Below the pieces are notes generated by a model. It had not been told where the DNA came from. It saw only the letters and a list, made by a program, of their open reading frames with translations, and made no database searches. From Tubulanus polymorphus (taxonomy: Eukaryota; Nemertea; Palaeonemertea; Tubulaniformes; Tubulanidae), in assembly GCF_964204645.1 (NCBI RefSeq), contig NC_134028.1, forward strand, positions 15,615,263 through 15,679,262: a stretch of DNA of 64,000 nucleotides, written 5' to 3'. Numbering within the stretch: position 1 is the stretch's first letter; every line of letters starts with the position of its first letter. The position numbers and the translations under genes are program-made. Below, in pieces: positions 18,652-45,189 of this stretch.

Positions 18652-19479
18652 ATGGACTGTATCGAGTTAGACCAGTTATCTAGCCTCCACGAGGCGACAC
18701 AGACCCTTAAACGGCAGGAAAGAAGTCTGTTCCACCCTTCACAGACAGGCCAAGAACCTCAGCGAATTGAGAGCCAAGATGCATGGGCAGACTTTATAAC
18801 TCTGCCTTAGAACAGTCGTTTGTGGAGGATCCTGGTCGCATAGTAACCGGTGCGGTAGTAACCGGTCTCAAGACGACAAAGACCCGACGTTTTCGGCCGA
18901 AGATGAGCACAGCTGCATTTGAGTACATCAGCCAGGAACTAGTGAACGCCGAATGTGGTGGCGACTCCTCGCACATCTGGCCGAGACTTGAAGACTTGAA
19001 ACAGAGGGCAGTTGAGGACTTACCAATCGTGTTGCTGGGAGACTCAATGTTTACGGGGCTAAAGGCCAGCGGCGGTTTGATTCCGATTTGCCACCCTGGT
19101 GAACGACTCGGTGATTTGTTGGAGTACCTCCCACATGTATCCTTTAGGGCAAGAGCGATTGTGGTCACGCATGGTATGAACCATGCCGGCGATTATGGCA
19201 GGACGACAGAGAAGTTTGTGGAAGTTTTGGCGCTACTCAAGGGCAAGCACCCTTCTGTTCCCCTTTTCCACCTACAGACCCCTGTCCCTCCTTGCTGGCG
19301 TGGTGACCACAATCGGGTAAACAACATCAACCGGGTTTAACGTCTTCGCCCTCCGTGCCAGGTTCCAACAGGCCGACCATCCAGATATCCCGGATTATGA
19401 TTTTGTGGGGATCCACTACAAAAAGTCGGCCATGCATTATGTCTGTCGGGAAAAAATCCGTGTGGTAGATCGCGTCTGA
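18652..19479 (+). pseudogene. ORF3 of element 1: SGNH/GDSL-type hydrolase-like, frameshifted
   Basis: A third gene between pol and the 3' LTR. It starts at ATG 18652 (MDCIELDQL). A frameshift near 18800 and another at about 19340 break it. The middle frame (18783-19340) has LLGDSMFTGL (block I Ser), CHPGERLGD (block II Gly candidate) and VVTHGMNHAG (block III Asn). The last frame has DYDFVGIHY (block V His) and ends with TGA at 19477-19479. The order and spacing match the SGNH hydrolase fold. The Asp partner lies five residues before the His rather than the usual three. It is homologous along its length to the intact ORF at 44341-45189, which supports the joined gene model. The substrate is unknown. 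Esterase domains of this superfamily are known in ORF1 of CR1-type LINEs; in a Ty3/gypsy env position I know of no standard counterpart. Confidence 0.7.
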
Positions 19480-19994
19480 ATGTGTTTCCTTCGGTACCTA
19501 ACGATGGTTCACCTGGAGTCGCTTATTCTTTGTAATGTTAGTGACAAAAAGCCATTCAGTCCAAATACTACCACACGTGACCCCCCAGATGTAGCACACC
19601 CCAGTGCGAACAGTTTCTTTCCGTTTTCTTTTGATTGCATTTTTCAGCTTCCCAGGACGAGGAACAGTGGCAGAGGGGCAAGGCAAGTGCAGTGTCCATT
19701 GGCCGTATCTACCTTTTGATGGTATAGATATTTTTGGTTAGACACTACGCTTAGGTGCGCCCCGAAAACAAACCACAAACCATTTGTGGAGATCGAAAGC
19801 TGCATGTATTATCATCACTGAGATGCAACCCTAATGCGAAACAACGACTACGCCGTGTTAGATGTCTACTGTATCCAGAGCCGAGAAGTTCGGAGCTTAA
19901 TATACTATAATAAGGACTATAATTAAATTTGTGTAGATATTTTGACTATATATTCCTGTTCAAATAGGAGTTTGAACAAGTTGAAGGGGGTTGG
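19480..19994 (+). other. 3' non-coding region and polypurine tract, element 1
   Basis: About 515 bp between ORF3 and the 3' LTR without a convincing frame. It ends with a purine run GAAGGGGG at 19983-19990, a candidate plus-strand primer. Confidence 0.6.
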
Positions 19995-20188
19995 TGTGAT
20001 GGAATATGTCCATCAGTCGTTTTCTATGTTGTAACTGTAGGGTGCTGCCCTCTCTCTCTCGAAAATACAGAACAATAGGTGATTGTGTTAATATCTTTTG
20101 TCCGCCTTTTTACTGGTTTTTGGGCTCTCAGAGTCGATATTTGGAGGAAACTTCTATTGTGGAACAGGCAGAATAGGACATCGTTACA
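19995..20188 (+). repeat. 3' LTR of element 1
   Basis: 194 bp, matching 12174-12367 with 7 substitutions, followed by the CTTG target duplication. Confidence 0.92.
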
Positions 20189-20192
20189 CTTG

Positions 20193-21855
20193 GCAGTACA
20201 TAGGAATCGATCTGCAGTCTGGGCCGACCACAATTCGATATTTTTCCTTCTTTGAGATATTCGCCCAACGGTGTTGTCTTCCAGTTAAAACTATAGATGC
20301 ATAAACTACTCAACTAAAATGTTGAACTAAAACCCAATACGATAACGTGAACTTCGGAAATTGATGTCGGGGAATTTAACATATGTAGGCCCTAGTCGTA
20401 TAAGGAATCAAGTATGCTGCATCGAATCGATCCTATTCCTCTTCAGCAATGGAAACAACGCTATGGTCTTATTTGAAAATATCTTTATTGACATGTAAAT
20501 ATGCACAAAATCTGTAGAGATATGATTATTTCTCGATGACTACAACATTAATACATATGTGTCAAACCTACGATGGAGAACCGAAACATTTTTTTCTCAA
20601 CTATTTTTTCATTTTTTGACTGGTCCCCTGATGTACAACCATGGAGGACTCTTAGTAGAGACAACATGCCATGCAACAGAAATAATCTATTCTCACAATG
20701 GTTGTTACGTGTTCTGATTTTTAGCACAAAATTAATCTTTTACACAAGGGTCATTTTAAACTATGTACGATATACATGTACCTGAGGTTGATAGAAATTC
20801 CTCGAATCGAAAATAACTGAATCTACATAGGGGAAACAATATATACCTTGTAGACAAATAGCCATTTAACATCATTATCAATACATGATAACATGGTTTT
20901 CATAAAAATTGACTAATACGTAGTAATGCGTATGGTGTAGAGTATACTCAGTAGTCACACATTTCCACAGGTTTATATAACATGTGACAGTGCTAATGAT
21001 TATTGAAAATGAAGAAAATCATACATTGGATAATATAGCAGCAATATTAGACAATTGGGTGGTCACCAATTCTAATAGGGGTAGACCTCTTACCTGCTAA
21101 TACACCAGGGTCAAGGAAATCAATATAGGTTGACAGGCTGTATGGTGCCAATGAAAAATTCAAGATGGAAGACATCCTGTCATGTTGGACATATCATCTA
21201 GCTGATAGATCACCATTTTCAATATCACCTCTTCCAACTCATACACAAACTTTCAAGAAGATTTATTAAGACTTACCGGCTGTAGAGTTCTAACAAACCT
21301 TACAGGAGGGTGGTGCAGGAGGGTTAGAGATTATTACAACATTGAACATTTTGAAAGTTCAGATGAGAAACTAAGCTTCTTTCGCAAGTTATTTTGTACC
21401 AATGGAGGCACGTGTCATACATGAGCAAAAATGGACTTCAGTCAAGCAAAAGTCCATAAAAATTATACGATGCCCCTAGGAAAGGCATCAAGACAACACA
21501 TCAAAGTGTAATGAAAACGTTAAAAAGGAACCTGATTCCATCTATGGACACTCATAATCCTCAAATGGACAAAAATGTTTGAATATTCAATACAAGTTCA
21601 TACCTGCAAATGCAAATCAATTATACAAACTCACACATGGAATCTAAATTAGAAGAAGTTGCGTTGGCAGAACCATAGAAGAGAATCTTCAATGACATAA
21701 CAAAATAGAGAATATTCTTTCTTTCAGAGTACATTTTTAAAGGGGTCCAGGAACACTCTGCCTACTCGGAAAATGATATGGAATGCCCAAAAATCAGACA
21801 ATTTCTATATTCTATGCCTCTTATACAGAAACCTTTGGAATTTACCACTAGAACT
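20193..21855. other. No gene recognised
   Basis: AT-rich sequence with short unrelated open frames only, and no domain motifs or exon-like stretches. The pre-insertion sequence of element 1 resumes here. Confidence 0.5.
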
Positions 21856-22061
21856 TGTCATGAGCTACAATTTTGCAATTATTGTAACAAAATAAGCCCA
21901 GATATCAACGTAATATGAAAATACTACGTTATTTGGCTATTCAGCGCTCACTGGTGACAATATACATAACCCAATGACCTTGAACCCCACCCAAATTATA
22001 GAACAAGTCATGAGCTACAATTGATTGCGGTTACTAAATTTTTAACGGATAGGTACTAATA

Positions 22062-23205
22062 TACATGCATCTTTCCTGGAGAAACTAAATGCACTACACC
22101 CTAATCTTAAATTTACTTCAGAAATAGGGCCGTCTACACTTCCATTTCTAGATACGTATATTTCGCTCCCAGCAACGGAGCTTCTCATGTATTTAGAAAA
22201 TCAACTTACACTAGCTTGATTCTAAACTTTTCAGCTATGTGTCCTCAAAAATGGAAATTTGGTTTAATCCAATGTCTGCTCCATAGAGCATATACTATAA
22301 GCAGTAGTTGGTTTGTTTTCTCACAAGAAATTGAGTTCCTAAAAAACGTTTTCCACAAAAATGGCTACCCACAAGATTTGTTTAATTCTTGTCTTAGAAG
22401 ATTTTTGAATAGCAAATGTAGTGATGTTACTCCCGCTAGTATGGTCAGGGAAGATAAGGTCGAAACACTTTTTTTCGTTCCTTACATAGGCCTCCGTTCA
22501 ATTATATTTAGCAGAAAACTCAAGAGTCTATTCAAACAATATTACAACGTGGATATTCGTATTGTCTTTACTTCTTTCAAAATTAGGAACTACTTTTCAC
22601 TCAAGTCCCATACTCCTTCACCCTTGTTGGCCAATGTTATTTATAAATCTAAATGTTTGCGTGATGCAAACAACACATACATTGGTAAAACAATGCGACA
22701 TTTGGCCACAAGGGTAAAGGAGCATGGAACTTCACCTTCAGCAATTAAGGAACATTTACCATCATGTATAAATTGTGCATCAAATTTTTCTTTAAAAAAC
22801 AACTTTTCAATCGTTGATTCTGGAAAAAATGACTTTGAAATCACCATCAAAGAGGCATTATATATAAAATCCAAAAAACCAAGTATTAACAAACAACTTT
22901 CCACACATGGTGTCTCATTTTTACTGAACGTATTTTGATATGTTTATAATCCATTTGTACTTTGTAAACTAGGCCACTTCACGCCTGCATGATATTCTCT
23001 GTAATTAGTAACAGTATACTATACATAGTTTGTATCTTTTCATGTCATTTCTTGAAAAGGACTCGAAGAGATGAGTCGAAATCGATTGAAACGTTTGAAC
23101 ATGTAAATAAACTCATTATCATCATGAAGATTGTGATAGTTGCGTTCTTATTATTATTTAACTATCTGGACACTCTTCCGAAATTATATAAATGGACGAA
23201 TTGAA
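22062..23205 (+). mobile_element. Penelope-like element, 5'-truncated
   Basis: The coding remnant (22076-22938) plus about 270 bp of 3' sequence is embedded in a copy of the 2.2-4-kb repeat. It keeps only the end of the reverse transcriptase and the linked GIY-YIG endonuclease. The left boundary (about 22062) is where similarity to the host repeat stops; the right boundary is approximate. Confidence 0.75.
22076..22938 (+). pseudogene. Penelope RT C-terminus with GIY-YIG endonuclease
   Basis: The first part reads LNALHPNLKFT and LPFLDTYISL, a block typical of Penelope-type reverse transcriptases. A frameshift near 22170 leads into the long frame with SLILNFSAMCPQKWKFG. The C-terminal third is a GIY-YIG nuclease: VIYKSKC in the GIY position, then NTYIGKTMRHLATRVKEH and the catalytic-type Glu in IKEALYIKSK, with Cys/His residues (KEHLPSCINC) that may bind zinc. 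It nicks target DNA for retrotransposition in the family. The catalytic RT core is missing, so this copy is dead. The long frame itself is intact to its stop. Confidence 0.85.
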
Positions 23206-23789
23206 TATATTCAACAACTGCCCCTGATGGTGAGAAAAAGAACTGGGTGATCCCAATTTCACATGAGGAGATGAAACCTATGATGGTGCTAATATTATCA
23301 ATTATCAAGACTCAAATTTAACACCCGTTGAAATTTTTCCACTTACGAATGAGTATTCATCACACTAAGATGGCCACCAGCTGCAAAATATTTGACTGAT
23401 CAAAATATGTGTCTGATATGTCAAAGATCCCTTCCCTTATAATACCAATCACAAATTTCAACGAAAAATGGCAAACCATTAGGAAGCTACAGGTCTTGCA
23501 CATTCAAGCCAAAAATAACCTTTTAGCACATAGAAAGGTTACAGGATGGCCATCTTGTAACCAATTTACCCAATTCTTCTATTGCTGATGAGTACAGGGG
23601 GACACATATAGTTCAAGATAATTGATCGAATTGCTTCAAAATTTTCATGGATAAAATGTGTAAAAAGCGTTGATTGCGGCGACCGTCATCTTGATTCCAA
23701 CAGGCTCATTTTTAGGACAGTTAAGTGGATGATAAGTGAATGCAATTGCCCACGGGGACTTAAGTCCAAGTTTAGCTAAAAATGAGAAA

Positions 23790-25305
23790 ACCTTTTAACA
23801 CTTACCATTTATCATTTTTCAACATAACACTTATGGTTCCAATTAACAGTTACCATATAACAAAGGGATTATTATCAGGTCTTATCTAAATATCCGAAAC
23901 CGCATAAAATCTAATTCTATTTTGTGAAAACAATCTAATTTCAATTTTAGTAAGCGCCCTTTCAATACCTAAAAATATTCCCATGTTTGAAGTAAATGAC
24001 TGATTTTGAATACACTCTACAGAAAACAATAAACATCACATAATGATTTTCACTTGCAGCCACCTTAAACAATCATCTCCATTGCTATGAAGTTCAACCA
24101 TTTGCTCCTCGGCTTTATCATGAGTGATTCCATGAACCTCCATATATATTATAATGAGTGTCTCAGGAAGAAGCACACGAAAAACATAATCCATAGTGGC
24201 CTACTGGAAGACACAAATATATATCAAAATTTTAAAGATGATACTCATGTACATGTATTTTCCTATGATTAGTCATACGTACCTTCATGTGCATCTGACA
24301 ATATATATCAGTTACGTTTGACAATTAGGTCACACTGATTGTTGCTGTACAGTTGCGATGGTACCTGGTACGTCAAGTTCACTGTAAGAGATCCATTTAA
24401 ACATGAACATATTAGATCAAAATCTACATGTAGTTACAGGGGAACCTGGCTATAACAAACTTAGACACAACAATTCATCACATATAAAGAACTAGCAAAT
24501 GATCCTTCCAAAAATGGGCTTTATCATGATTGAATTGAAAATTTTGCTTCTTGTGGGTATTTTTTTCATCTAAAAATTGGCTCCTTTTATTCATTTAATT
24601 GGTAGATACAACATATTTTATTTGGAAGGTCAATTGAAAAAGATATCCCTAAACTACAGTGACTTATGCTGTAAGTGCAGCAGAAGTGCTATATTTTCGG
24701 GGTTTATCATGCGTGAGCAACGTAATTGTTTCATTTACCAAGATTACCTTTAGACCATTCAAACAGAAAGTTATCAACGCGCGAAGATACAAACATCAAT
24801 AAAACCTCCACTTCTGACTGGCACTGTAGTTTGGTCAAGAGATACATTCAGCAAATATGGCCCATTATTCATACTTACACCTTTTCTTTCCTCCTGCTTT
24901 ATGATCATCAAGATGTCGACATAAAATCTGAAATCATATCAAGTTTAATATAATTGCTATCGGCAATGTATACTTATAACGTGCTAAGGTGATCTCTAAT
25001 AATGTGATGTATTATTCAAAGTAATCAACAATTTTTTAAATTTTTGAGATTACAATGGATATCAATCAAATCAATCAAACACCAGTCTTTATTCAAAAGG
25101 TCCAAACCTGTCAAAATATGGAGGAACAGAAGAGAAGTACACAAAAGGTTGAGAAAAAAATAATACTTAGCTTTGGAAAATGCTGCCTAGATATCCATGA
25201 TTTTTATTTAGCAAATTAACCAAATCATCATCCTTCAACTGCGAAACCTCTCTGTAAGAAAACAGAAGAAAATCAAATATATCATTTGACTAGGAAGATG
25301 TACTA
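23790..25305. other. No gene recognised
   Basis: AT-rich sequence with only short frames, no motif-bearing translation and no repeat that I can match elsewhere in the window. Confidence 0.5.
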
Positions 25306-26970
25306 AGTATGGGCTCGCCATTTTGTGATTTTAAACAAGTGCTAGATGACCCGGAGGTAGCGACGCGACTTGGAATGGATTTGGCACCTGAACGTGTCTG
25401 GATCCACGCCACCCCTTGCCAGGAAGAAGCGTCTGAACTACCTGTTTTGGTGAGGTCATCCGAAACTAGATGCTCACTGAGAAAGGACAGGTCTGTCACA
25501 GTGCGTAAGCCTCCCGAGGCCTTGAGCTCTGTAAACAGTCTCGAGTTCCAGCCCAGAGAGGACTCGTCCGGTATCTGCTAACATGTTGTAGTAATAGTGT
25601 ACATGTTCAATTTTTTAACAATCATTTAATCTCAATTCATTTACTAGTGAAGGGAGCATATTTCTCCAATTTGGCTGTGTAATTTTGAGGTTCTTGACGA
25701 TCTCTTCCTATCGGCTGGATTTCCCTAATCAGCGAGGATCTTGCTGCCAGAATCATGTTGATTTGAGCCTGACAGCCAGTAAAAGCGAGTCACTGACCTA
25801 GGAAGTAGATAATTCTATTTAAACCGTCGATAGGTGGCTCAGCCAGAGAGAGAAACTTTCCCGGCTCGGGGGCCCTACTCCAGCGGGGGATCGGTAAACC
25901 CAGTCAGTCGGTCCTGGACCCGTATTTATCAATACACATCAACTCGGCTGCCACCACAGATGACTCGCCAAGAGCGTGAGCATCCTCCTTGGAGGCGGTA
26001 TCTGAAGCCATGCACTCAGCCTGTTCCGCGGACTTACGAGGTTTAGGCATGGTGGCGCCATGTTTGCATAAAACCTTTTGGATGAGTGTGTAGAACGGAC
26101 TATCCGCCGGTGCTGAAAAGTTAAAACTGGTAGCGAACGAGCCCGAAGGCAGTCGGTCAAACGTTAATGGTGAACAGGAAGTGGTCAATTCGGATGGTGG
26201 AATCCAAGGCGACGACTCCCTGGAACCCGGATGCGTGATGGGACCTGCCTCCAAGAAAATTCGTCGAAATCCTTGCGGTCAGGATCCGCGTGGGTAACAT
26301 CCCTGGGACTGGAGTTCTCTGACTCGAAAAACAGGGAGCGAGGGGCTCCAGAGCCGGTCGGTTTGAGGCGACCCTTTGTCGACTCTGCTCAGGGGACAAG
26401 GAGCTCCTGCGACAGCTCCTGTAAGGACATTGAGGACACTCCTACTTGAGGATCTTGACCTCGGGGAGTTGGATGAGGTCGAAGAAGACGGCGATGGAGA
26501 CTCCTACGACATGTTCCAGGGGAGCGACGAACCGGCGAGCAAGCTCTTGGCCCGGCTAGGCAACTTGACACGATATCAGACGATGCATGGGCAACCGGAG
26601 CCGGAGACGAGAGCGGCACAGACTTGGGCACTGGCTCTGTTTACTACTGGTATCTAGTACAGTAGTCGCGAGAGTGATGGGAGGTGGATGGCTGGATTTC
26701 TTATGAGAATCCCATGAGGGATCGCCGGCCTGCTCCCCTACCGATGGACGGCCAGAAGGAGAGGAGCCCGCGAATCACTCAAGGAAATCAGTATGATGTT
26801 GAAAAGGTCGACTGGACTTTCCCAAGCGAATCAAAGATGAGAAGCAAGAGTTATCGCAGAAAAACAAGAGATGCATTAGTATTGTAATTCGATTGTGCTC
26901 CAAGACAACCAATGACTTGCCTTTCGCATTGAACTTAGTTAAACTGTCGAATAACTTTAGTTACCCCCTG
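25306..26970. other. GC-richer stretch with long but unrecognised frames
   Basis: The composition shifts to clearly higher GC than its flanks. On the minus strand one frame from about 26500 to 25814 is open except for a few stops (for example TGA at 26279-26281 and the stop at 25904-25906) and contains NFSAPADSPFYTLI. On the plus strand 26376-26657 is open with an acidic run (DLGELDEVEEDGDGD). Neither resembles a family I know. It lies directly upstream of the BEL/Pao pol, so it could be that element's gag region or another retroelement's, but nothing proves it. Confidence 0.3.
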
Positions 26971-26975
26971 TGCGT

Positions 26976-28680
26976 TTAGAAGGCTAACGTAGGAAACTAA
27001 GCATAAATGAACAGTTCCGTGATCACTACCGAACTTTCATGTCGATGGCAATCAAGTCAGGTTACGCCGAACTGGTACCCCCAGATAGCGTAATAACCAA
27101 CGGCCGCGTATGGTATCTACCCCGTCACAGTGTCTGTCACCCGATGAAACCACACAAGGTTCATGTCGTTTTCGATGCCTCAGCGTAGTTCAACGGAGTG
27201 TCGTTGTTACAAGGGCCCAACCTTATCAAAATTCTTGTTTGTATACAGCATCGCTTTCACGAGGGTGAAGTACCACTGAAAGCTGATATAGAAAGGATGT
27301 TCTTTCAAGTTAGGGTGCCACCAAAAGATCGTGACTGCCTACGTTTCTTGTGGTGGACCAATGTGACAAAAGAACCAGGGTGCTACCATATGACTGTTCA
27401 CTTATTCGGAGCTGTCTCATCACCAAGCTAGGCAAACATGCCCTTGCCTCAAACGGCTATCGAAAATGCTGATGACTTCGCGGTATGAACCCTAAGTCGT
27501 CAATGATTGCTTGAAGTGTACTGCTGACCCGGCAAAATCTGTCAGTCTTACGTTTGAGTTGAAGAGTTTATGCCAACACAGAGGGTTCAACTCGAATCAG
27601 TGTAAAGATATCTCCATCATCGGCACTATCAGAGAACGACCATGCTCATGAGATGAACCAGACAGACATGAGTAACCCTGAATGTCACGTCGAGTGCTAT
27701 TTTCAGTGGTGGCATCATGTTACCCCAATGCGGTTCATGTCGCCATTAATACTTCCAGCGAAGCTCATCTTACACCGGTTAAGCTTATGCGAAGTAAAGA
27801 TAGGCTGGGACTCACCTGTACCCGAATCAGAGTCCGCTGCCTGGAAACAGTGGTTGGACGTGTCTTTGTTGAATACAATCCTAGCTCCGAGAGTCTGAAA
27901 CCGAGCAGCCGCTGTAGCATCATGTTCTGTATCATTTTTCAGATGCTTGTGTTATCGGTTAGGGCACCGCATCGTATCTGAGGCTTGTTGATACTGAAGG
28001 CCTGATAGCCTGTTCGCTGCTCCTTGGCAAATCGAGAGTCGCCCTGGTCGTTAAGAAAGTCTTAATTCCATGCTTAGAGCTCACCACAGCGACTATGGCT
28101 GTCTGGATAGATAATATGCTTCAGCAAGAAATCGACTTGAAGGTGGAAGATACCTTCGACCGGACCGACAGCACCATAGAGTTGTGTTACATGAATAATG
28201 AAATGTTGCTTACCGAACATTCATAGTGAATAGAGTAGAAATCATACGTGACAGTTCAGATGTGAGTTGCTGTAACCACATCTCCCCACAGGAGAACCAG
28301 CTGACGTCATTTCTTTCGGACTACAGTTTAAGGAGAGTCATCGTCTAGACCAGTGGCTGAGATGTCCAGACTTTCTACGCCAGACTCGTGATAATATTTG
28401 GCGTCCACCCAAGTGGAGTGGTAGTTACCGATTGAGGATCCGGAATTTAAGAGAACTAGCACTGTCTGTGCCTGCATAGTGATCGTTGATCATCCCGTTG
28501 TATATCTGCTCCAAAGCTTCTTGAGTTGGTCCGAACGAGAATGGGCGCGATTGGACTAGACGCATCAGAGAGATTTATCGTCAAGGTGTGTAATATCAGT
28601 ACTTGTCCAATGAGATTGCAGAACTGTCGAAAGGGGAGAAATGTCTGAGCAAAGCTTATCACATTGCGAAACTGGGAGCG
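26976..28680 (+). pseudogene. BEL/Pao retrotransposon pol, heavily decayed
   Basis: Plus-strand frames give BEL/Pao-type RT blocks: VWYLPRHSV, KVHVVFDASA, LLQGPNLIK, KADIERMFFQVRVP, CLRFLWW and HLFGAVSSPS (27000-27430). After breaks comes VDDCLKC-like sequence (about 27490-27520). Near 27965-28190 an RNase H-like stretch reads SYLRLVDTEG, GKSRVALVKK and LIPCLELTTATMAV. Around 28290-28400 there is PADVISFGLQ and QWLRCPDFL. Several stops and frameshifts (e.g. TAG at 27186-27188) show it is dead. No integrase core or LTRs were found; the 49-bp array begins directly after it. Confidence 0.8.
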
Positions 28681-28682
28681 AG

Positions 28683-29239: not shown

Positions 29240-29463
29240 GATTACCTGTGTGGCTGGATCGAGGGGCTATGAGTACTTCGGTTTGTCAGTATGTCAGTAA
29301 ACAACGCAAAGTTTGCAGCCAAATAACTCTTTGAAAGATTTTTTGTCATATGCCAGTTGGTCGGTATGTTGGTAGAAAACTGAGTGCACAACAGCCGAAT
29401 TACTCCTTTTTAAAAATATATCTTTGAGTGAACTAGTCCACGCTAACCTGGACTTGAACCGGC

Positions 29464-33402: not shown

Positions 33403-33404
33403 GG

Positions 33405-34336: not shown

Positions 34337-37300
34337 GTGACGACGCAGAAAAGACGGAGAATGGCGGTTTCATTAGTGACAATGCAAATTTCGTGAACGT
34401 GTTCTTCCATGCTAAAACATGTCGACTGACGAAAGCATCAGCTAAAGGTTTCCTTTTCGGTGAGTTTTATTTATTAACATTTTTCAAAGTTAAGGCTATG
34501 TTTACAAATGAAATGCAATCATGTTCAACCTTTCAGGCGCATTTGATTTTGAAGTCATTTTCGACGGTGACGTTTCTTATTCAAAACCTTCAGCCACATG
34601 TCGTAATCCGGCGATCGTGTTATTGGACTACAGCGTAAGTGAATCCTGCGTCTATTTGCACAGAACTGTTTGTCTCAAATGTTTGGTTAGGTTATATAAA
34701 TATTTTAAACCGTTTTTACCTCGATAATAACAATCATACTGATAACAAGTACAAGGATTATAATGATTTATCACTTATAAGCGCTTTCCATCCTAAAAAT
34801 CTCTTCGCTCTCTAAAAACAGTGTATCAATCAAAAAACTCAACACTGCTTAAACTGCTGCTTGAATTTCTACTTAAACTCTTGAAAGCTTTTTATCCTTA
34901 ACTAAAACCTCACTCATTAAACTTTTTAAACTTTTTTGTGTAGCCGGACGCTATCTGTGACACTGGTTTTACAGTGATTTCCTGAACTTCGCTGAAAAAG
35001 CTGAAACACTGAAAAGCTGAAACGCTGAAATAAAAACGCTGAAATTTCAGGGAATTTCCGAAAAACGCCGAAATTTCAGGGAATTCCCGAAAAACGCTGA
35101 AATCGTGCTAGGTACCGACAATACACGTTTTGAAATTTTTTCCGGGCCGGTGTCCGCTGACGAGTCCTGAACCGTGTTTTATGCTCTACCTTCGGTTACA
35201 GAGACATGCCTTAAGGTCGTCGTCATGATCGACTTGATCGATTGCGTGGATTGTTAGATGTGTTTTTTGCCATAGTTTTATGTGCATATACCGGTACGAT
35301 CTAACAATGAAGTTATCACTTCATTTGAATAAATTCTTAATCACAGTAATATTAATTCACAATATTTTTTCTTATGTTTCGTGATTTCTTGCAACTTATC
35401 ATTGCCAAGTCTCATACAAGTAGTAGCTGAATGAAAGTACAGTTAGGCTGAACCTGATAACCCAAATTAAGTGCTAGCATGGAACTAATGATTATTTTGA
35501 TTCTATTTTCGGTGTCATTGAAATTCGTTAAGAAAGGTTCAACCGTCATAGTATACTGTACTTAGCATTGCTACAATTGGGTGCCATATTTCTACAATTT
35601 CTACAAGGAGGAAGGAATCTTTAAGTGTCTTTGTTCCCGGGTAGGTGGTTCACTTTCTCTTTCGACTTGCCGGAGACTACTATCTGCAATGTATTGCATG
35701 CTTTGATGTGTCTGGCCTATAGGAGTCGAACGATATTTTTTTCCCATACACAGGCTTGGCTTTAGTGTAGATGAAGGCTAGGCACTGCACATTGTGGATT
35801 GACTGGAACTCTTAACTCACAAAATTAAACGAGTCAACAAGAAAGATCCAATAATTGGACATTTGTCTAACTATATTATTTAACAGCTTGAAATAAAACA
35901 TAACACATTCTGCAAGAGTATACAAAGGAAATCAGTTCTTACATTATATCAGAATCAATAGTTCGCTTAACTCTGGCTAGAATTCTGGTTCCATTGCTTC
36001 ATATTCTAATGAAATCCACTAGGCCTAGTATACCTTAGAATATCGCTTAGCTTAAGACTAAAAATTTGGTACCAGGAAACAGGGAAGAAAAGTGGGTGTA
36101 CTGTACATCCGCAATTGACTTATTTCTCTCAGGTTGAATCAAGTTATTATTGAAATAGCATTCGAATAGCCATTTTATTTTTAAAAATTGTGTCGTTCAG
36201 CTATCCTGCTGCAAATTTCGCAGTTGAAGTTTACTGGTGCCATCTGATTTCTCAGTATCTCAAAAAATTTGCACATTCTAAGCCTGAATCTAAAAATAGA
36301 AAAAGGTGCATTTTAGTCGGATATAAAAGAATAGTGGCTAATGCACCCTGGACTATATAGCCTATGGGGTGGGCCTAGTTTGAAAGCACTGAGGTCCGAG
36401 AGAACAGCACTTAGTAAATAAATACTGAAATTAAACTTACAAAACACCCAGTACTTGAGATGATGTACTTGACAAGAAGTGTCACCAGCTAAGCAAATCA
36501 ACTTTGTCTATGACTCCTCCTTTTATAGATTCAGTAGTAGTCTAAAAATAAGAATCGGTACATTTTTCTAACAGTTGGTATGTCATTTCTTCAAAAAAAC
36601 TAATTATTATCACGCCACAGCAAATAAATTATTCACAGTTGTTGAATGGTTAGCCCGATTTAGATTAATTGGTTGACGCTAATCAGTATGACCCATACGT
36701 AGGGGCCTACTGCATGCCATTGGCGTCAATCCATTCCATTCCATTCCACAGTGAATTAAAAAGAAATTTAGTTAGATCCCTTTTGTCCAAAAGCTGCATC
36801 ATTTATATAACTAGCTGTCAAATTTAATTTACCTCCTTCAGAGAATACCATAGTGACATAGTCCGTCGCCCATCAACGTGTTGACAAAAGAAAAGTTGCT
36901 GCATGTTTTATACATGAACGTTCAAATAAGATATTTTGCGTCTTGCAGGGAATATTGAGCATAGTGTTTAAGTTGGCTTGCACGGTTTGTGAATGGGTTT
37001 TCCTAATTATGCTGCCTGTATGCATTAAAAATCCGGATTTCAAGCGAATTAATTTGTCCAACAAGTGGCCCTCTAGAAATATACTCCACAAATACTGTCC
37101 ATGCATGTCTCTGTAACCGAAGGTAGAGACTAAAACACGGTTCAGGACTCGGCAGCGGACACCGGCCCGGAAAATATTTCAAAACGTGTATTGTTGGTAC
37201 CTAGCACGATTTCAGCGTTTTTCGGGAATTCCCTGAAATTTCGGCGTTTTTCGGAAATTCCCTGAAATTTCAGCGTTTTTATTTCAGCGTTTCAGCGTTT

Positions 37301-37471
37301 CAGTGATTCAGCTTTTTCAGCGAAGTTCAGGAACCGCGTAGGCACATATCGAACGTGTTTTCTGTTCAGCATTCCCATAGATCTTCGATTTTTCAGGGAG
37401 AAAATCTCGAAACAGTTGTGAACATGTTCGCACCGTTCGACGAGGTTTTAAAGATGGGACCGCAGTGGTAA
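34337..37471 (+). CDS. Host gene of unknown function, last three exons
   Basis: Three exons join with matching phases: 34337-34459, 34537-34634 and 37397-37471, the last ending in TAA (37469-37471). Splice sites are consensus (CAG before each exon; GTGAGT and GTAAGT donors). The first intron is 77 bp, the second 2762 bp. The encoded C-terminal ~97 residues include FFHAKTCRLTK, FGAFDFEVIFDGDVSYSK, CRNPAIVLLDYSGE and MFAPFDEVLKMGPQW. I do not recognise the family. No membrane segment or repeat is visible in this part, and two Cys are present. The unbroken phase across three exons argues for a real gene. Upstream exons were not found. The second intron is mostly the 2.36-kb inverted-repeat element. 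Confidence 0.65.
34979..37333. mobile_element. Inverted-repeat (foldback-like) element, 2.36 kb, in an intron
   Basis: The ends are TTCCTGAACTTCGCTGAA and its reverse complement. The arms, about 235 bp (34979-35213 and 37105-37333), pair along their length and include iterated GAAATTTCAGGGAATTCC-type words that are themselves partly palindromic. The 1.9-kb core is AT-rich with no recognised gene. It accounts for about 85% of the intron between the last two exons of the host gene. No target duplication is evident. Confidence 0.8.
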
Positions 37472-38343
37472 AATATGAGACGTGCTGGATGGACGTCTAT
37501 ACAGAGGAACCTTGTATTTCATAAACTCGACTGATATCTTGTTCAACATATCAAATGAATTCATACTTGAATTGAATAAAATGCATCAATCTATTTTGCA
37601 CGGAATTGTCTTCGTTGTTTGTTTACCAATTTCCTCACTTGAAAATATCATCAAAATGGTAATAAGCCATTTTTTGATTAAAGCAAATTTGATCCATTCG
37701 TCACATATCGTGCGATGATCAGAAGGTCATTAGATAATTCTTCAGCTGGCTATTCACAAGACACACTTTAAATAGATAATACTACGACAGGGTCAAATTT
37801 CCTCGTGCAACAGCATTATTTAAATGTAATTTGAAGTCTACGTCTTCACTGCCAATAACAGATATGAAAAGTGATTGACCACGAGCCGTAGTGATAAAAC
37901 AAAATAGTTATTTTATATACATGTATTCTGATCATAAAGAAATCTGTAAATATCAAAATTGTGTGAATCATAATCTTGTTCTTGACAATGAAAACTTATT
38001 TCATGTATGATTTACTCTTACTCGATTCAAAACGTAACTAGCAACGGCTGATATATGTTGACTACACGACTGTGACTGTGAATGACTGGATTGAGTTCGG
38101 ATTCCTTCACGGTTTAAACATTAACCGCAACTATCAACTTATGCTAAATTTGAATCTAACAAAGATATTCAACGATCGCCGATACTGAATTTCATTTGTC
38201 GACCAAAAATGCACCAGTCGACCACGTGACTGGTGCGGTCTTCTATAAATGTCACGAATCTTGCGAACGTACTCACTTGCTGTTTGGACGTCGCTGTCTT
38301 GTTCTAACGGAGTCGAATTTCTGAAGTTGTAAAACTGATTGAA
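37472..38343. other. Intergenic, no gene recognised
   Basis: This is the 3' flank of the host gene and the left flank of Ty3/gypsy element 2. On the minus strand a short frame (about 38134-38340) reads through into the insertion site and has a GTGAGT donor-like word after GTCCAAACAGCAA, but nothing supports it beyond that. Confidence 0.4.
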
Positions 38344-38574
38344 TGTAACGGTGTAACTTCCGCCTGTCATTGTATTGTAATATAGTGTATTTGTATTGGT
38401 ATTAATAAATGTTAACGATAGGTGGCATACCTATCGCTCTCTTGAAAAGAATCCTTTGTCCTGGTAAGTCGTGTGTTATCTTTTGTCCCGGTTCAAGACC
38501 CGGAACGTCCCCTACTACAGCGGCGATTACCTCTCATATTACCATTAGAATACTCCAAGACGACAATTGTTACA
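38344..38574 (+). repeat. 5' LTR of element 2
   Basis: 231 bp, TG...CA bounded, with an AATAAA at 38404-38409. It is nearly identical to 45694-45924. Confidence 0.95.
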
Positions 38575-38597
38575 CTGGTGGCAGCGAAGTGGGATTT
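38575..38597 (+). other. Primer-binding site region of element 2
   Basis: CTGGTGGCAGCGAAGTGGGA follows the LTR directly and almost equals the string at the same place in element 1. The tRNA is not assigned. Confidence 0.65.
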
Positions 38598-38934
38598 TAT
38601 TTCGATTGTCGTGTATTTTATGGTCTTTTAATGCGGCTCCACGTTGGAAACCTAGTCTGAGCGACCACGCTTACCATTATTAGTAGAAAACACTTGAAAG
38701 ACTTATAGCGGACACTCATAGCAGTTAAAACCGTTAACTTGTCCTATTCTTTATTTAATCAGAATTAGTACTAAGAGAAAATTTGCCATTGGGGAAAAAT
38801 TATTTTTATTTGCATATTATTTTATTATTGCTGGGGAGACTGAGAGCGAGACACAGACCGGTATACCAAAAACTTTTGTTCACCTTTTCTATGATATTGG
38901 ACTGTATTGAAATAACTACTGACTTGTATTTATA

Positions 38935-39942
38935 ATGTCGATGCCTGGGGAACATTCCAAACAAGATGCTAGTAATCTCGATGTCAACCAGTTCCTCATG
39001 TCTGTGACACAGTATGTGGAACATAAAATTAAAAACACTAAGTCAGAATCACCCTCTGAGCCAGCCAGACCCAGAGACCACACCAAGGTCAAGGTACCTG
39101 CACCTAAAACCTACAGTGCTGGTCACAATGTTAAAGTATGGCTCGAGAGATTTGATAGTAACTGTGACCTCATGGGGATAACTGATCCTTCAGTACAGAA
39201 GGATCATCTCTTAATGTATATGGACCATGAGTCATGACTGGCCATCAAAAATCTTCACTTGTCGGACAAACTGACCTATGATGAGTTCTCGACATCCATT
39301 AAAGACCGTATGTCCCTAACTAAATCGCCCGGCGATTACAAACTTATGCTAAAGGCACGCGAGCAAAAACAGCCCGAAAACCTCGGACGTTTCGCCGACG
39401 TATTTATGGAGCTAGCCCAAAACGCCTATCCAGACGCTGGACATACGCTACAAGACGAGCTGGCTCGTGACCAGTTTTTGACTGGAGTTAATTTGCCATT
39501 AACAGCTAGGGAACAGTTGTACGTTTCTCAGCCGAAAACCTTGTCAGAGGCTGTGTCACTGGCTAGAGGTTTTGAATCGGCTAGGCGTATAGCTGAAAAC
39601 CAGGATTCGAGGGGGAAACGTGCGATGGAAAATGAAGCCCAGGCAAAGCCCATCGAGACCGAGCTGCTTTCGGAACTGGTTAAACAGGTCCAGAGTTTAA
39701 ATCTCCGCATCGAAAATCTCGAGCGTCGAGGTCAGACAAGGCCTTCCAGGAATCCGGAACCTCCCAGAAATCCGGTGGCTGACATCTGTTGGCGCAGTCG
39801 GGTGCCAGACCACCCGGCTAGTGCATGTCCTACGGTGGTATGCCACTCGTGCACTGAGCCCGGACATTATGCTAGGAACTGTCCTAATAGTCAGGGAAAC
39901 GGGAAGATGCGTTGCTCGAGGGGCAGAGGCAAGCGCTTTTAA
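38935..39942 (+). pseudogene. Ty3/gypsy gag, element 2 (one internal TGA)
   Basis: ATG at 38935 (MSMPGEHSK). The capsid-like part has VWLERFDSNCDLMG and LQDELARDQFLTG, matching element 1. A single in-frame TGA at 39235-39237 interrupts an otherwise open frame of 335 codons. The nucleocapsid has one good CCHC knuckle (CHSCTEPGHYARNC) after a degraded one (CWRSRVPDH...C), and a basic tail. It overlaps the start of pol by 31 bp; pol is in the -1 frame relative to gag, and the gag stop lies in CGCTTTTAAAC, so a programmed frameshift is conceivable. Confidence 0.88.
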
Positions 39943-42900
39943 ACCATCGGCCCAAAGTCCCGAAATATATCCCTCCACACCGTAGACAATTAGATACCTG
40001 TATAAATGTTGTAAATACCCCTGTATATAGAACGAATGAAAATGATTATGAATACGACAACCCACAGGGTAGCTGCCCGAACTCAAGTGGTTTACAACTC
40101 GGGAAGAGCACACCTCCTGACGGTCAAAGCTCCTCTTCAAAGTACACCCCGAACTCCGAAGCAGACCTACCCACAAACAGTGACCGAGAGCCCACCCCAT
40201 TAGTTCGAAGTGTACAGAATGTAGATATCCGTGACACTGGCCTCCATTGTTCTGCTATAGTCAATAGTGTAGGAAGAATCTCTGCGCTTCTCGACACCGG
40301 CGCTGCTGTGACTATGCTCAAGACTTCTGTCTGGGTGGCGAGTAACGGGGGTGAAATGGGATGCCTGAAACCAATTGATTTTGAGTTGGTTACGGCTACC
40401 GGTCAGGATATTAAGGTTAGGGGTTCGGTCGATGTTCGCCTTAGTTTGGGGGATTGTAGTTTTATGGTTCCATTGGTGATTGCAGATGATTTGTCACAGG
40501 ATTGTCTCCTTGGTGGTGATTTCTTCCGCGACAACAACTGCGTGATTGATTACCCAAATAGAGTCATGAGCTGTGGCCTGTCTGACATACCATTGGAACA
40601 CAGGGATTCCCGACCAACTGCGTGTCGCCTATTCTTGACCGAGACTCGCATGATCCCAGCCGGACACGAAATTGTAGCTACTGCTTATTTTAGGCAGAGA
40701 TACACCCACAACAACAATTCTGTCGGGATGGTTTGTGGTAGAGCCCCGGGTCCATTCGGTATTGGTAGAACCCTGGTTACCCCGAACGATAACAAGGTGA
40801 CTGTCCGTTTGGCAAACTTTACGAACGTGACGTGCCATGTCAACCGCGGTGAATTTGTAGGGATTTTCTCTCCGTTAAACAGTATCGAAATCCTCACTAC
40901 TCAGGATAAGAGACCAGATGTCTCTGAAATCCCTACCATTAGTGAGGATCTAAACTCGTTGTTTAAGGAGCTACAGCTCGATGCCATTGACATTTCGGAC
41001 AGTGATCGCGAGGCCTTAAAGAAGGTTGTCGCTGATTACCAGGATGTGTTTTCCCGCGACGACTTTGACATAGGGAGGACCGCGTTAGTCGAATTTGAAA
41101 TAGATACGAGTGACCATCGCCCCATCAAACAACAACCTCGGCGTTTACCACCGAGTCATAGACAGTTTGTGGAGGGTCATACTGCCGAATTACACAGTCA
41201 CGACCTCATCCGACTATCACAATCTCTCTGGGCCAGCCCCATTGTCTTGGCCAAGAAGTCCGATGGTAGCCTTAGGCTGTGTTGTGATTATCGGAAGTTA
41301 AATGACGCTACGATAAATGATAGCCATCCGCTTGGGCGAACTGACTCCACACTTGAAGCTCTGTCCGGGTCATCATGGTTCTCCTCTCTTGACCTCACAA
41401 GTGAGTATCATCAAGTGCCCATACGGGAGGGAGATAAACCAAAGACAGCGTTCTGCACGGAGAATCGATTGTGGGAGTGGAACGTCATGGCGTTTGGCCT
41501 GACTAATGCCCCTGCCTGTTTTTCACGGCTTATGACTATGGCCCTGGATAAGGTCTCGTGGAAAACGGCATTAATATATCTCGATGATGTCATTGTTCAC
41601 TCAGCTGACGTTGGGTCACACATTGGTAAACTCGCTGAGGTGTTCTCATGTTTCTGGTCTGCAAACCTTAAACTGAAACCCAGAAAATGTCACCTACTGC
41701 GGAGACGGTTGAAGTTTTTGGGCCATATTGTTAGTGGGAATGGTATGGAGGCTGACCCGTCCAAAGTTGAGAAAATTATGAACTGGCCTGTTCCAACCAC
41801 AGTTTCAGAGGTCCGCAGTTTCACAGGGTTAGTGACCTATTATTCAAAGTTTATTGAGGGGTATTCCCAAATGTGTCGTCCCCTACACCAGCTTACTAAA
41901 AAGGGCCATGTCTTTGTATGGGGGATAGAGCAACAGCGAGCATTTGACGCCATAAAAAGGGCACGTACTAGCCCTCCTGTTTTGGCCTTCCCTGATTTCG
42001 AGACAGGTGCAGGCAAATTTATTATCGACTGTGACGCTAGTGACTGGGCAATTGGTGCTGTACTTTCACAGGTGCAGGCAGACTCGTCTGAACGGGTAAT
42101 CGCATATGCTGGTCGCGCACTACGGGGTGGTGAAGAGAATTACTGTGCCACCAGGCGAGAGATGCTTGCCCTGGTCGATATGATTGAACACTTCCGGCAT
42201 TACTTGTTGGGCCTGAAATTCTTGGTGCGCACTGACCATGCAGCACTTAAATGACTCCGGTCTTCAAACATTCAGTCTGGACAAGTTGCCCGCTGGAACG
42301 AACGATTGGCCGACTATGACTTTGATATTGAACACCAGCCCGGGCGTATCCACCTGAATGCGGACGCACTTTCCCGCATCCCTAAACGACTGAAGCGTCA
42401 TGGAGTCTGCCCAAGCTGTGGTCAGACCGGCGCCCCAAAATGTCAGGTTTCGGCGGTAGGTATGGGTAGTGATCATGCAGGCTTGTCGACAGTGGACATA
42501 GCGCGGTTACAGGACGAGGACGCCGACATATCTGTAGTCAAGGACCTGGTCCATCGACAACAGATTAAACCTAGTGCCGATGTGATGCGCCAATTTAGCA
42601 CCAAAACCAGAATGTTTCTTGGTGAATATGAGCGCCTAGTGATTGACAAGGACGTTCTATTTTTGAGACCCTCCCCTGGATCCAGACTTTCGAAATCGCG
42701 TGTTGTTCTGCCTTACGTGTTACTAAGGTTTTGTCACACCTTCACGACGGTATCTCCGGCAGGCACTTAGGGCGCACTAAGACAGAACGGAAGATGCGCG
42801 AACGATTTTGGTGTCCAGGTCTGACAAGAGCTGTCCATGAGTATATTCAACAGTGCCAGAAATGTCATATATGCAAAAATCCGCCCAAGCGACCGAAGGC

Positions 42901-44278
42901 ACCTTTGGTGTCAACACCAGTGGGTCGTAGAGAGCAGAGGTTGCACATTGACATAGTGGGCCCCCTACAGCGTACTAAACGCGGCAACACTTACATTATT
43001 TTTGTCCAGGACGCTTTCACTAAGTAGGTTGAGGCATGGCCAGTACGGAATGAGAAGGCCCCCACTGTGGCTCGGAAAGTCGTCGATGAATGGGTCACGA
43101 GATATGGCTGCCCAGAAAGCATTCACTCGGACCGGGGTGCCAACTTCGAGTCCAAGGTTTTTACAGAAATGTGTCGACTGTTGGGTATCGATAAGACGCG
43201 TACCACCTGTATCACCCGATGGGGAATGGTCAGGTGGAAAGCTTTAATAAATCCATCAATGCCATGCTGACCATATCCGTGAATGAAACTGTGAATGAAA
43301 TGGCACTGACTGGGATACGAAACTGTCATCATGCCTGATGGCATTTCGTTCTAGTGTTCAGGAATCCACAGGCGAAACCCCATTCTACCTGACTTTCGGT
43401 TCAGAGATGGTCTTGCCTCTAGATATCATGGTTGGACCACCAGAAGAGCAAGTGTACATCACTAAGTTTAGCCGTGATGTACACTCTTACTGGAGGCGCA
43501 CCAAAGAGTCAGGGAGAGACTGGGTAAGGCTCAGCGGTGTCAGACTGTCAATTACGACAGATTTGCTAGGCGGGGTGGGTATAACGTTGGGGATCGGGGA
43601 TGGCTCTATAGTCTTGCCATTAAGCCGGGGGAGGCGGCAAAATTCCATAAGAAGTGGAAGGGCCCCTTCATTATTATTGAGAAACTGTCGGAGGTGACGT
43701 ATCGGGTCAGACTGGAGGGGGGTCCCCCAAAGCAAAAGACTGTCCACTTCAATGATGTGAAGCCAGCGTTTGGCCAGCCGCATACCAACGTCAAGAAGGC
43801 TGTCCCCGCCAGAACTAGAAAGAGGACAGTTGAACCCCAACCTGCCCCTGAGATTGAACCTGCCCCTGAGATTGAAAATTCGAGCTCTTCAGGGAGCAAT
43901 GACGAGGAGATTGTCTGGAGGTGCCCAAACGAGCGGATTGTGGCAGTACCACCCAATGACGCCACACCAATCGAAGCGGAGGCAGAAGTCGATCCGGAAG
44001 TCGATCCCCCAGCGGGTCAGCTAGTGGAAAATGCCCAGCTGCATCCACCGGCCGACAACGGAGATCAATCTGGTCGTCTGCACCCGAGGAGAGCATTGAA
44101 TGAGCCAGCTCGATTCAGGGACTTTGTTCGTCATTGCCCCATACCGGCAACCAGTACAGCAGTTAATGGCGACTGTACCACCTGCTGTCAGCGATGGTCC
44201 AGAATCCGGGAGAAGAAAGATCTGTGGCTGAAGAAAGCGCGAAAATTGCTGCGAGACAGAGAACACCTCACCGGTTAA
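39912..44278 (+). pseudogene. Ty3/gypsy pol (PR-RT-RH-IN), element 2, broken in its 3' half
   Basis: The frame is open from 39912 to 42251. Protease LLDTGAAVTML, then RT with LRLCCDYRKL, FGLTNAP and YLDDVIVHS, then RNase H with DCDASDWAIG and RTDHAALK. A TGA at 42252-42254 replaces the Trp expected after AALK; the same frame continues to 42770. The integrase zinc-binding region (HLHDG...H, CQKCHIC) is in another frame from about 42725. The core has Asp in HIDIVGP, a TAG at 43025-43027, Asp in IHSDRGANF, then frameshifts near 43205, 43290 and 43550. The final frame (43694-44278) has VHFNDVKPAF, duplicated QPAPEIE-type wording and a Cys-containing tail (GDCTTCCQRW) comparable to that of element 1. 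Confidence 0.92.
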
Positions 44279-44310
44279 ACTATCTGCCCTCCGGCCAACT
44301 TAACGTTTTT

Positions 44311-44332
44311 CTCTCTTGCCTTCTGTTTTTAG
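44311..44332 (+). promoter_or_regulatory. Candidate 3' splice site before ORF3, element 2
   Basis: A long pyrimidine tract, CTCTCTTGCCTTCTGTTTTT, followed by AG (44331-44332), lies 8 bp before the ORF3 ATG. It is a stronger acceptor than that of element 1, at the same relative place, which suggests spliced expression of ORF3. Confidence 0.6.
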
Positions 44333-44340
44333 CTGCCAAA

Positions 44341-45189
44341 ATGTCTGATGTTCTTCAGTTGGATACGTTGAACGAAGAAACACGAGACCTGAAGAAGGCC
44401 GCTGTGCAAGATGTGCGAAAATATGTGCAAAGCTACACGAAAAGGACTGAGCCCGAATGGACTCCGGACTTCAGTGCTTTGGTAAGTTCATGTGAACGCC
44501 ATCTGTACCAACGAGGTGACATGGTCGCTGGTTCCGTAGTTGCTGGCGTCAAGGCTTTCCTGTCGTCAGCCAAGCGGTCACGGCCATCCATGTCGATGGA
44601 GAGGTTAAATCGCCTGGGGACAGAACTCAGCTGTTTGATATCCCGGCATGGGGGTAAGAGTATACGTCTCGTGGATAAGCTGGAGAAGCTTAATCGACAG
44701 CTCCGAGTCGGAGATCTACGGCGTCCAATTCTCCTGCTGAGCGACTCCATGTTTAAAGGAGTCAAGTGCAGCGATGACATGTATGTCATCGCTCACTCAG
44801 GAGAACGGATCGAGGAGGTCAGTCGGACCATACGACTGATGAGCGTCAGCTGTTCAGCTGTTGTCGTTAACCACGGGGTGAATAACGTGCGGGAATTCGG
44901 TGATACGGTCAAGGAGATATATAGCCTGGCCAACCTTATACAGCGAAAATATCCCCTTGTCCCGATTTTCCACCTTCGTGTCCCAAAAGCCCCGTGTATG
45001 AGAGGCAAGCGCGAGACGGTCATCCCGATTGACCGCATTAATGTACATTTCGAGAAGGCCGGGTTTCGTACCATCGAACATCCAGACCTTCCAGACCACG
45101 ACTACAGAGGGATCCATTATCGACCGAAGGCAGTCAATGAAGTAGCCCGTCATATTATTGCCTCCGTCAAGAGTCATTTAGAGTCCTAA
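44341..45189 (+). CDS. ORF3 of element 2: SGNH/GDSL-type hydrolase-like protein, intact
   Basis: 282 residues from the ATG at 44341 (MSDVLQLD), chosen because it follows the acceptor and the pol stop; the frame is also open upstream. The N-terminal ~125 residues are helical-looking and unassigned. The C-terminal part fits the SGNH hydrolase fold: LLLSDSMFKGV (Ser136, block I), HSGERIEEV (Gly154, block II candidate), VVVNHGVNNV (Asn181, block III) and DYRGIHYRP (His259, block V, with Asp254 five before it instead of three). No signal peptide or membrane anchor is seen, so a secreted or surface env-like role is not supported. Family members cleave esters or acetyl groups; the substrate here is unknown. 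It is the only complete gene downstream of the pol breaks. Confidence 0.72.
   Translation: MSDVLQLDTLNEETRDLKKAAVQDVRKYVQSYTKRTEPEWTPDFSALVSSCERHLYQRGDMVAGSVVAGVKAFLSSAKRSRPSMSMERLNRLGTELSCLISRHGGKSIRLVDKLEKLNRQLRVGDLRRPILLLSDSMFKGVKCSDDMYVIAHSGERIEEVSRTIRLMSVSCSAVVVNHGVNNVREFGDTVKEIYSLANLIQRKYPLVPIFHLRVPKAPCMRGKRETVIPIDRINVHFEKAGFRTIEHPDLPDHDYRGIHYRPKAVNEVARHIIASVKSHLES

What the first reader, a model, noticed from the sequence alone, without database searches (positions are those of the whole stretch)
18652..45189. SGNH/GDSL-hydrolase-like ORF3 in the env position of two diverged Ty3/gypsy elements
Both LTR elements (12174-20188 and 38344-45924) carry, between pol and the 3' LTR, a ~280-codon ORF with SGNH hydrolase landmarks: GDSM or SDSM, a Gly in PGER or SGER, Asn in HGMNH or HGVNN, and His in GIHY. 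The copies align along their whole length although the LTRs are unrelated, so the gene is an old, inherited part of this lineage and not a chance capture in one copy. It is intact in the younger element. Esterase domains of this superfamily are known from ORF1 of CR1-like LINEs, and receptor-destroying esterases occur in some enveloped viruses. A hydrolase as a third gene of Ty3/gypsy elements is not a standard component I know of. It lacks a signal peptide or anchor, so an intracellular role is as likely as an envelope-related one.
Basis: partly seen in the sequence, partly recalled or inferred. Interest (0 to 1): 0.88.

Follow-up and report, generated by a model that had tools for sequence, protein, structure and literature searches.

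The report
Retrotransposons carrying their own hydrolase gene
A lineage of jumping genes in what appears to be a ribbon-worm genome carries a hydrolase-type enzyme gene where retroviruses keep their envelope gene; the arrangement was known from rotifers, but here it is a different version that looks actively maintained.

Summary

In the host genome (very probably the nemertean Tubulanus polymorphus) ORF3 follows 50 of 69 sampled reverse transcriptases of this clade and 0 of 81 others. It is under purifying selection (dN/dS down to 0.12) and does not reject the pol tree; some copies with intact ORF3 inserted very recently. A splice-acceptor-like site precedes its ATG in six of six families tested, suggesting env-like spliced expression. 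No signal peptide or membrane anchor was seen.

GDSL ORF3s are already published in rotifer Vesta elements (Rodriguez 2017). This is a distinct variant: no dUTPase found, GPY/F integrase, extra helical domain, missing canonical acid. The biochemical role, perhaps membrane-lipid or acyl-ester hydrolysis, is inferred only.

The parts
12174..12367 (+). 5' LTR of element 1; TSD CTTG at 12170-12173
   Evidence: 188 of 195 positions compared match the 3' LTR
12258..12259 (+). candidate 5' splice donor (ATAG|GTGATT) in U5 of element 1
   Evidence: found by eye, no RNA data
12613..13392 (+). gag of element 1 (Retrotrans_gag, E 3.7e-4, just below Pfam's cut-off)
14102..17920 (+). pol of element 1 (protease, RT, RNase H, integrase with GPY motif), interrupted in several frames
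18615..18650 (+). two candidate 3' splice acceptors (gttgcag with AG at 18615-18616; tttctag with AG at 18649-18650) before ORF3 ATG 18652
18652..19479 (+). ORF3 (SGNH hydrolase) of element 1, split over three reading frames
19995..20188 (+). 3' LTR of element 1; TSD CTTG at 20189-20192
38344..38574 (+). 5' LTR of element 2; TSD TGAA at 38340-38343
   Evidence: 229 of 231 identical to the 3' LTR
38464..38465 (+). candidate 5' splice donor (CCTG|GTAAGT) in U5 of element 2
   Evidence: found by eye, no RNA data
38935..39942 (+). gag of element 2 (with CCHC knuckle), interrupted
39891..44278 (+). pol of element 2 (protease, RT, RNase H, integrase with GPF motif), interrupted
44331..44332 (+). predicted 3' splice acceptor AG after a polypyrimidine tract, 8 nt before the ORF3 ATG
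   Evidence: score reached by 1.2% of 1550 windows
44341..45189 (+). ORF3 (SGNH hydrolase, 282 aa, intact) of element 2: helical domain residues 12-120, hydrolase domain 127-282; Ser136, Gly154, Asn181, His259
45694..45924 (+). 3' LTR of element 2; TSD TGAA at 45925-45928

Best explanation
ORF3 is an inherited third gene of one clade of Ty3/gypsy retrotransposons. It encodes an intracellular SGNH hydrolase fused to a helical N-terminal domain. Shown by sequence or model: the fold, conserved S/G/N/H, purifying selection, linkage to one pol clade, recent insertions with intact ORF3. Strongly suggested: it is translated from a spliced subgenomic mRNA (donor in U5, acceptor just before the ATG), so it is made separately from Gag-Pol, like env. 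Inferred only: it hydrolyses an ester or thioester at a membrane (phospholipid, lysophospholipid or acylated protein) and so helps particle assembly, traffic or release. My estimates: SGNH identity 0.95; inherited under selection 0.9; spliced expression 0.75; membrane or acyl-ester role 0.35.
Against: The acid three residues before the catalytic His is absent in 12 of 12 sequences with letters there, so activity is not assured. No member scanned passes Pfam's GDSL cut-off. dN/dS is only 0.62-0.69 for the pairs of families C and E, and 1.02 (not significant) for element 1 against its sister. The pol alignment rejects ORF3's own best tree (p-AU 5e-7). 19 of 69 clade RTs have no ORF3 match nearby. 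The U5 donor was not found in families C, E, F or H, and G has GC in place of GT. No RNA or biochemical data.
Confidence: 0.6

Rival explanations
1. ORF3 is an Env substitute acting outside the cell or at entry, for example as a receptor-modifying esterase on particles.
For: Env position and env-like splice layout. Env-independent cell-to-cell transfer by another accessory protein is described for Drosophila elements (PMC11952523, abstract). Sialate O-acetylesterases are among the fold matches.
Against: No signal peptide or transmembrane segment seen: the highest 19-residue hydropathy in each of 16 sequences is 0.81-1.59 (no dedicated predictor was run). The model shows helices and one alpha/beta domain, nothing fusogen-like.
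Confidence: 0.1
2. ORF3 is a pseudoenzyme: an SGNH fold kept for binding lipid or RNA, as in the Oskar OSK domain (its binding role is recalled; Oskar is named as having lost activity in PMC3905857).
For: The canonical catalytic acid is missing in 12 of 12. Family E copy L013 has Tyr for the Asp before the Ser.
Against: Ser, Gly, Asn and His are kept while the gene is under purifying selection. The acid of a conserved His-Pro-Asp/Glu (residue 249) is kept in 12 of 12 and could serve.
Confidence: 0.15
3. ORF3 is the same gene as the rotifer Vesta ORF3, shared by descent or transfer, so nothing but the host is new.
For: Same position and same superfamily (PMC5408684).
Against: Pol differs: no dUTPase detected in the protease-RT-RNase H frame of element 2, and GPY/GPF is present in integrase (read) where Vesta1-5 have only the proline. 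A sequence comparison with Vesta was not possible; two profile searches returned only own-species P0001 and a 201-aa environmental protein, P0002, and those searches need shared 5-residue words.
Confidence: 0.15
4. ORF3 is a passenger gene without function, captured once and decaying.
For: Many copies are broken.
Against: dN/dS 0.12 and 0.26 in the two strongest pairs, at least eight families, and 12 of 15 fetched D loci with an uninterrupted 277-codon frame (loci picked for long matches without stops).
Confidence: 0.02

Closest known systems
Vesta LTR retrotransposons of bdelloid rotifers with GDSL esterase/lipase ORF3 (Rodriguez et al. 2017, PMC5408684)
   Same: Retrovirus-like LTR element with an SGNH hydrolase as ORF3 after pol, S/G/N residues kept, no TM domain; the paper says ORF3s in LTR retrotransposons are typically expressed from spliced messages.
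   Different: Vesta carries dUTPase and (Vesta1-5) a reduced GPY/F motif; its extra ORF3s are missing from the earliest branches, and their intragenomic variation showed no departure from neutrality. Here: no dUTPase found, GPY/GPF present, ORF3 in most sampled members of the clade and under purifying selection between copies, with a helical N-terminal domain and no canonical acid (neither of these last two was compared with Vesta).
Esterase domain of CR1/L2/RTEX ORF1p, e.g. zebrafish ZfL2-1 (PDB 4c1b; Schneider et al. 2013, PMC3905857)
   Same: SGNH fold in a retroelement, N-terminal helical part plus esterase, Ser/Gly/Asn/His.
   Different: Position is ORF1, not ORF3; triad Asp279-His282 and the transposon-specific His four residues before the Asn are absent here (His is three before). 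Profile comparison with LINE esterases of the same genome is weak (prob 37.8).
SGNH ORF of amphibian Ngaro-like elements (PMC9210276, passages)
   Same: Extra SGNH hydrolase ORF in a retroelement, function unproven.
   Different: Tyrosine-recombinase element with split direct repeats in place of LTRs and integrase.
Cellular SGNH hydrolases: PAF-AH alpha subunits, E. coli TesA
   Different: About 13-16% identity; only residues 127-282 of ORF3 align, not the helical part; they have the catalytic Asp.

Membership tests
SGNH hydrolase superfamily | Catalytic Ser in block I (GDS-like) | tested here: met
   Ser136 in 16 of 16 aligned ORF3s
SGNH hydrolase superfamily | Oxyanion Gly in block II | tested here: met
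   Gly154 in 16 of 16
SGNH hydrolase superfamily | Oxyanion Asn in block III (GxN) | tested here: met
   Asn181 in 14 of 14 with letters; 2 gaps
SGNH hydrolase superfamily | Catalytic His in block V | tested here: met
   His259 in 12 of 13 with letters; the exception, L036, reads there in another frame than its own C-terminal match
SGNH hydrolase superfamily | Flavodoxin-like alpha/beta fold | tested here: met
   predicted model only
SGNH hydrolase superfamily | Hydrolytic activity | not testable with these tools
   the usual acid three residues before the His is absent in 12 of 12; D/E249 is kept in 12 of 12
Pfam Lipase_GDSL_2 (PF13472) | Score above the curated cut-off | tested here: not met
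   4 of 9 A2 members match, best E 0.0074; the three scores tabled are 15.6-17.1 bits against 32.9
Ty3/gypsy (Metaviridae) LTR retrotransposon | Order gag, protease, RT, RNase H, integrase between LTRs with TG...CA and 4-6 bp duplication | tested here: met
Vesta lineage of bdelloid rotifers | dUTPase domain between protease and RT | tested here: not met
   no dUTPase in the 787-aa PR-RT-RH frame of element 2 at E <= 1
Vesta lineage of bdelloid rotifers | Pol groups with Vesta in a tree | not tested
   Vesta sequences were not at hand
ZfL2-1-type non-LTR retrotransposon esterase | DxxH triad acid and transposon-specific His four residues before the Asn | tested here: not met
   acid 0 of 12; His lies three before the Asn whereas the three LINE ORF1s looked at in this genome show HxGTND
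Viral envelope glycoprotein (Env) | Signal peptide and transmembrane anchor | tested here: not met
   simple hydropathy on 16 sequences: no 19-residue segment above 1.59; no dedicated predictor run

The most novel reading that the evidence does not exclude
ORF3 is a dedicated dissemination gene: a spliced, cytosolic lipid or acyl hydrolase that replaced Env in this clade and lets capsids cross or leave host membranes without any fusion glycoprotein, an envelope-free route of spread that arose separately from the rotifer Vesta case.
Probability: 0.15. Interest if true: 0.85.

Novelty: new variant of a known kind. Interest (0 to 1): 0.52.

Why it matters
In rotifers the GDSL ORF3 was patchy and its intragenomic variation looked neutral, so it was unclear whether such enzymes matter to LTR elements. 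Here one pol clade has kept the gene through at least eight families, under selection about as strong as on integrase, with an env-like splice layout and very recent insertions. That makes the question 'what does a retroelement gain from a hydrolase' testable with one protein of about 280 residues.

Tried and rejected
Chance similarity: rejected (E 4e-34; 116 matching stretches in the own genome). Capture in a single copy: rejected. Sequence-only searches gave little: phmmer and hmmsearch against the PDB gave only weak rows (E 0.65 or worse) of other folds; Pfam stayed below cut-off; IMG/VR gave 5 pattern matches, none confirmed, in a search that reaches close relatives only; phages had no DNA match; Rfam and tRNA scans of the window were empty. 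Protein database searches: the single sequence found none at E 1e-3 (it missed even P0001), profile A2 found only the own-species P0001, profile A3 found P0002, a 201-aa ENA protein of unknown host on a 1,028-base contig. The first fold from two sequences was poor (pLDDT 56.8) and was not used. Origin from the LINE ORF1 esterases of this genome: not supported (hhalign prob 37.8; different His register). ZfL2-1 (4c1b) did not appear among the 50 rows shown by Foldseek or VIA, which excludes nothing. Troyka was considered and dropped: 3-bp duplications, CG ends and no envelope (PMC12440569, passages); ours have 4 bp and TG...CA. The Lamellibrachia LTR survey (PMC8220671, passages) has no occurrence of esterase, hydrolase, GDSL or ORF3. 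Descent of ORF3 from a host gene was not tested. (papers) added nothing beyond PMC6431247, whose passages repeat the membrane-penetration idea for rotifer GDSL ORFs.
Full report
What is there. The window (G000:C4:15615263-15679262) holds two Ty3/gypsy LTR retrotransposons. Element 1 spans 12174-20188 and element 2 spans 38344-45924. Both have TG...CA LTRs, 4-bp target duplications (CTTG, TGAA), a CTGGTGGCAGCG stretch after the 5' LTR (the primer-binding position; tRNA not assigned) and a purine run before the 3' LTR (read). Pfam finds gag or its CCHC knuckle, protease, RT, RNase H and integrase. Between the two elements RT/RNase H is 63-69% identical, the integrase core 65-78% in pieces, its C-terminal part 46%, gag 40-45% and ORF3 37%, so ORF3 diverges about as fast as gag. 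ORF3 of element 2 is uninterrupted (44341-45189); its pol is not. Element 1 is interrupted in pol and ORF3.

Host. A profile of ORF3s found one named protein, 'uncharacterized protein LOC141907666 [Tubulanus polymorphus]', whose longest contig has 27,379,721 bases, the exact length of our contig C4. The host is therefore very probably this palaeonemertean ribbon worm (taxonomy).

Copies. ORF3 of element 2 has 116 matching stretches in the genome, pieces of one copy counted apart. I fetched 40 loci around long matches. 34 of 40 have RT or integrase matches within the fetched flank. The misses are L028, L029, L035, L043, L046 and L047; L028 keeps a pol remnant and looks internally deleted. By ORF3 identity I count at least eight families: A (element 2), B, C, D (element 1), E, F, and two that lie far from every query, G (L036, 42% to the nearest) and H (L038, 33%). 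Of the 15 D loci, chosen for long matches without stops, 12 have an uninterrupted 277-codon ORF3. Six D copies have a 1,542-1,552-residue open frame around the RT. I fetched both LTRs of seven of the D copies for which one search listed both: four pairs are identical, and three differ by 2-3 bases, some of which may lie in the flanks.

Linkage to one pol clade. A search with the RT of element 2 scored 150 of 703 candidates. Identities fall into two groups, 58-100% (69 matches) and 39-48% (81 matches); I set the split after seeing this gap. Against 85 ORF3 places typed (rows adjoining one already listed were left out), 50 of 69 in the first group have ORF3 on the same strand within 8 kb downstream, median 2.87 kb, against 0 of 81 in the second (Fisher 2e-24). 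A weak row (C7:8624074) makes it 51 of 69 by hand. The other misses were not inspected. Because 553 candidates were not scored, this is a sample and not a census. Of the 85 ORF3 places, 53 have a scored clade RT within 9 kb upstream.

Trees. On 17 tips (thinned from 30 loci with enough pol and ORF3; family G is not among them), families A, B and C group in both the pol and ORF3 trees (support 96 and 81). The ORF3 alignment does not reject the pol tree (p-AU 0.105). The pol alignment does reject ORF3's own weakly supported tree (p-AU 5e-7). The simplest reading is co-inheritance without visible swapping.

Selection. NG86 on chosen pairs: A 0.12 (281 codons, p 1e-29), D 0.26 (p 1.6e-9), F 0.40, B 0.54, E 0.62, C 0.69 (each p < 0.05). 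Element 2 against L004 gives 0.47 (p 0.07), and element 1 against L022 gives 1.02 with only 17 changes. Medians over all pairs of a family: A 0.39, B 0.44, D 0.37, F 0.46; C and E have one pair each. In copies with both genes, ORF3 and integrase medians are A 0.20 vs 0.32 (3 pairs), B 0.55 vs 0.44 (10), C 0.69 vs 0.56 (1), D 0.39 vs 0.27 (78), F 0.52 vs 0.61 (5). Pairs share copies and are not independent; broken copies pull values towards 1.

Expression. In one representative of each of families A to F a polypyrimidine tract and AG lie 8-35 nt before the ORF3 ATG. With a scoring matrix of my own their scores are reached by 0.5-3.5% of windows in the same loci; combined p 1.2e-6 if independent. 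Of 15 copies scored, L028, a second D copy, does worst (13%). Five copies without a readable start, including those of G and H, were printed but not scored. For D there are two candidate acceptors, at -35 and -1. In the LTRs of A, B and D a donor-like site (GTAAGT, GTGAGT or GTGATT) lies 12-14 nt before a shared (A/T)TCTTTTGTYC motif; G has GCAAGT there, and C, E, F and H showed no such site. The donor was found by eye and was not scored against chance. A spliced mRNA from the 5' LTR to ORF3 follows by inference; Rodriguez et al. state that ORF3s of LTR elements are typically expressed this way, so this layout is not itself new.

Mechanism. The favoured reading is a separately expressed cytosolic hydrolase acting on ester or acyl bonds at membranes. 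It rests on the fold, the kept S/G/N/H, the lack of secretion signals and the analogy with ZfL2-1 ORF1p, whose esterase hydrolyses a model ester and binds phospholipids and liposomes (PMC3905857; abstract and sections 12, 15, 19, 20 read). Rodriguez et al. propose membrane penetration or auxiliary roles for the rotifer case (PMC5408684; abstract, Results and Discussion read). Envelope-free transfer by another accessory protein is reported in Drosophila (PMC11952523, abstract and outline seen).

Novelty. GDSL ORF3s in LTR retrotransposons are in print for bdelloid Vesta elements. In the listings of the open-access library searches I saw no report of them in nemerteans or in a dUTPase-less, GPY/F Ty3/gypsy clade; subscription papers and Repbase entries were not covered, and most listed papers were not opened. 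Relatives outside this genome: P0002 (ENA, 201 aa, E 2.2e-6) shares the SDSMFK, NSGET and NHGIN stretches (hhalign prob 97.3 over 93 columns), but its C-terminal, His-bearing part did not align. The family is probably wider than this genome.

Noticed in passing
window 58489-64000: Polinton/Maverick-like genes: integrase (rve, E 2e-9) with a chromodomain below cut-off, Pox_A32-like ATPase (E 3.7e-12), and further open frames to the window's end without Pfam match (the Polinton label is recalled).
   Followed up: partly
window 51630-55729 (-): Remnant of a MULE-like transposase unit: ZSWIM RNaseH-like match (E 4e-13), with MULE and PHD matches below cut-off.
   Followed up: partly
window 22111-22938 (+): Weak GIY-YIG match (E 7.6e-4, below cut-off), possibly the end of a Penelope-like element (the element name is recalled).
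   Followed up: no
window 46059-46367 (+): Dermatopontin-like frame (DERM, E 7.9e-23) directly beside element 2; similar DNA to 46198-46712 recurs at 48169-48665.
   Followed up: no
window 39891-44278 versus 44341-45189: Element 2 has 99% identical LTRs yet several interruptions in pol while ORF3 is intact; rapid decay, spread in trans and assembly errors are all possible.
   Followed up: no
L028:2528-4787: D-type copy with part of pol deleted but ORF3 uninterrupted, next to a B-type LTR stretch.
   Followed up: partly
L049, L051, L055: LINE-type ORF1 proteins with cysteine knuckles and an SGNH esterase (read); profile PF13472 matches 81 stretches in this genome, and the A4 profile finds ZfL2-1 4c1b (E 1.7e-5).
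   Followed up: partly
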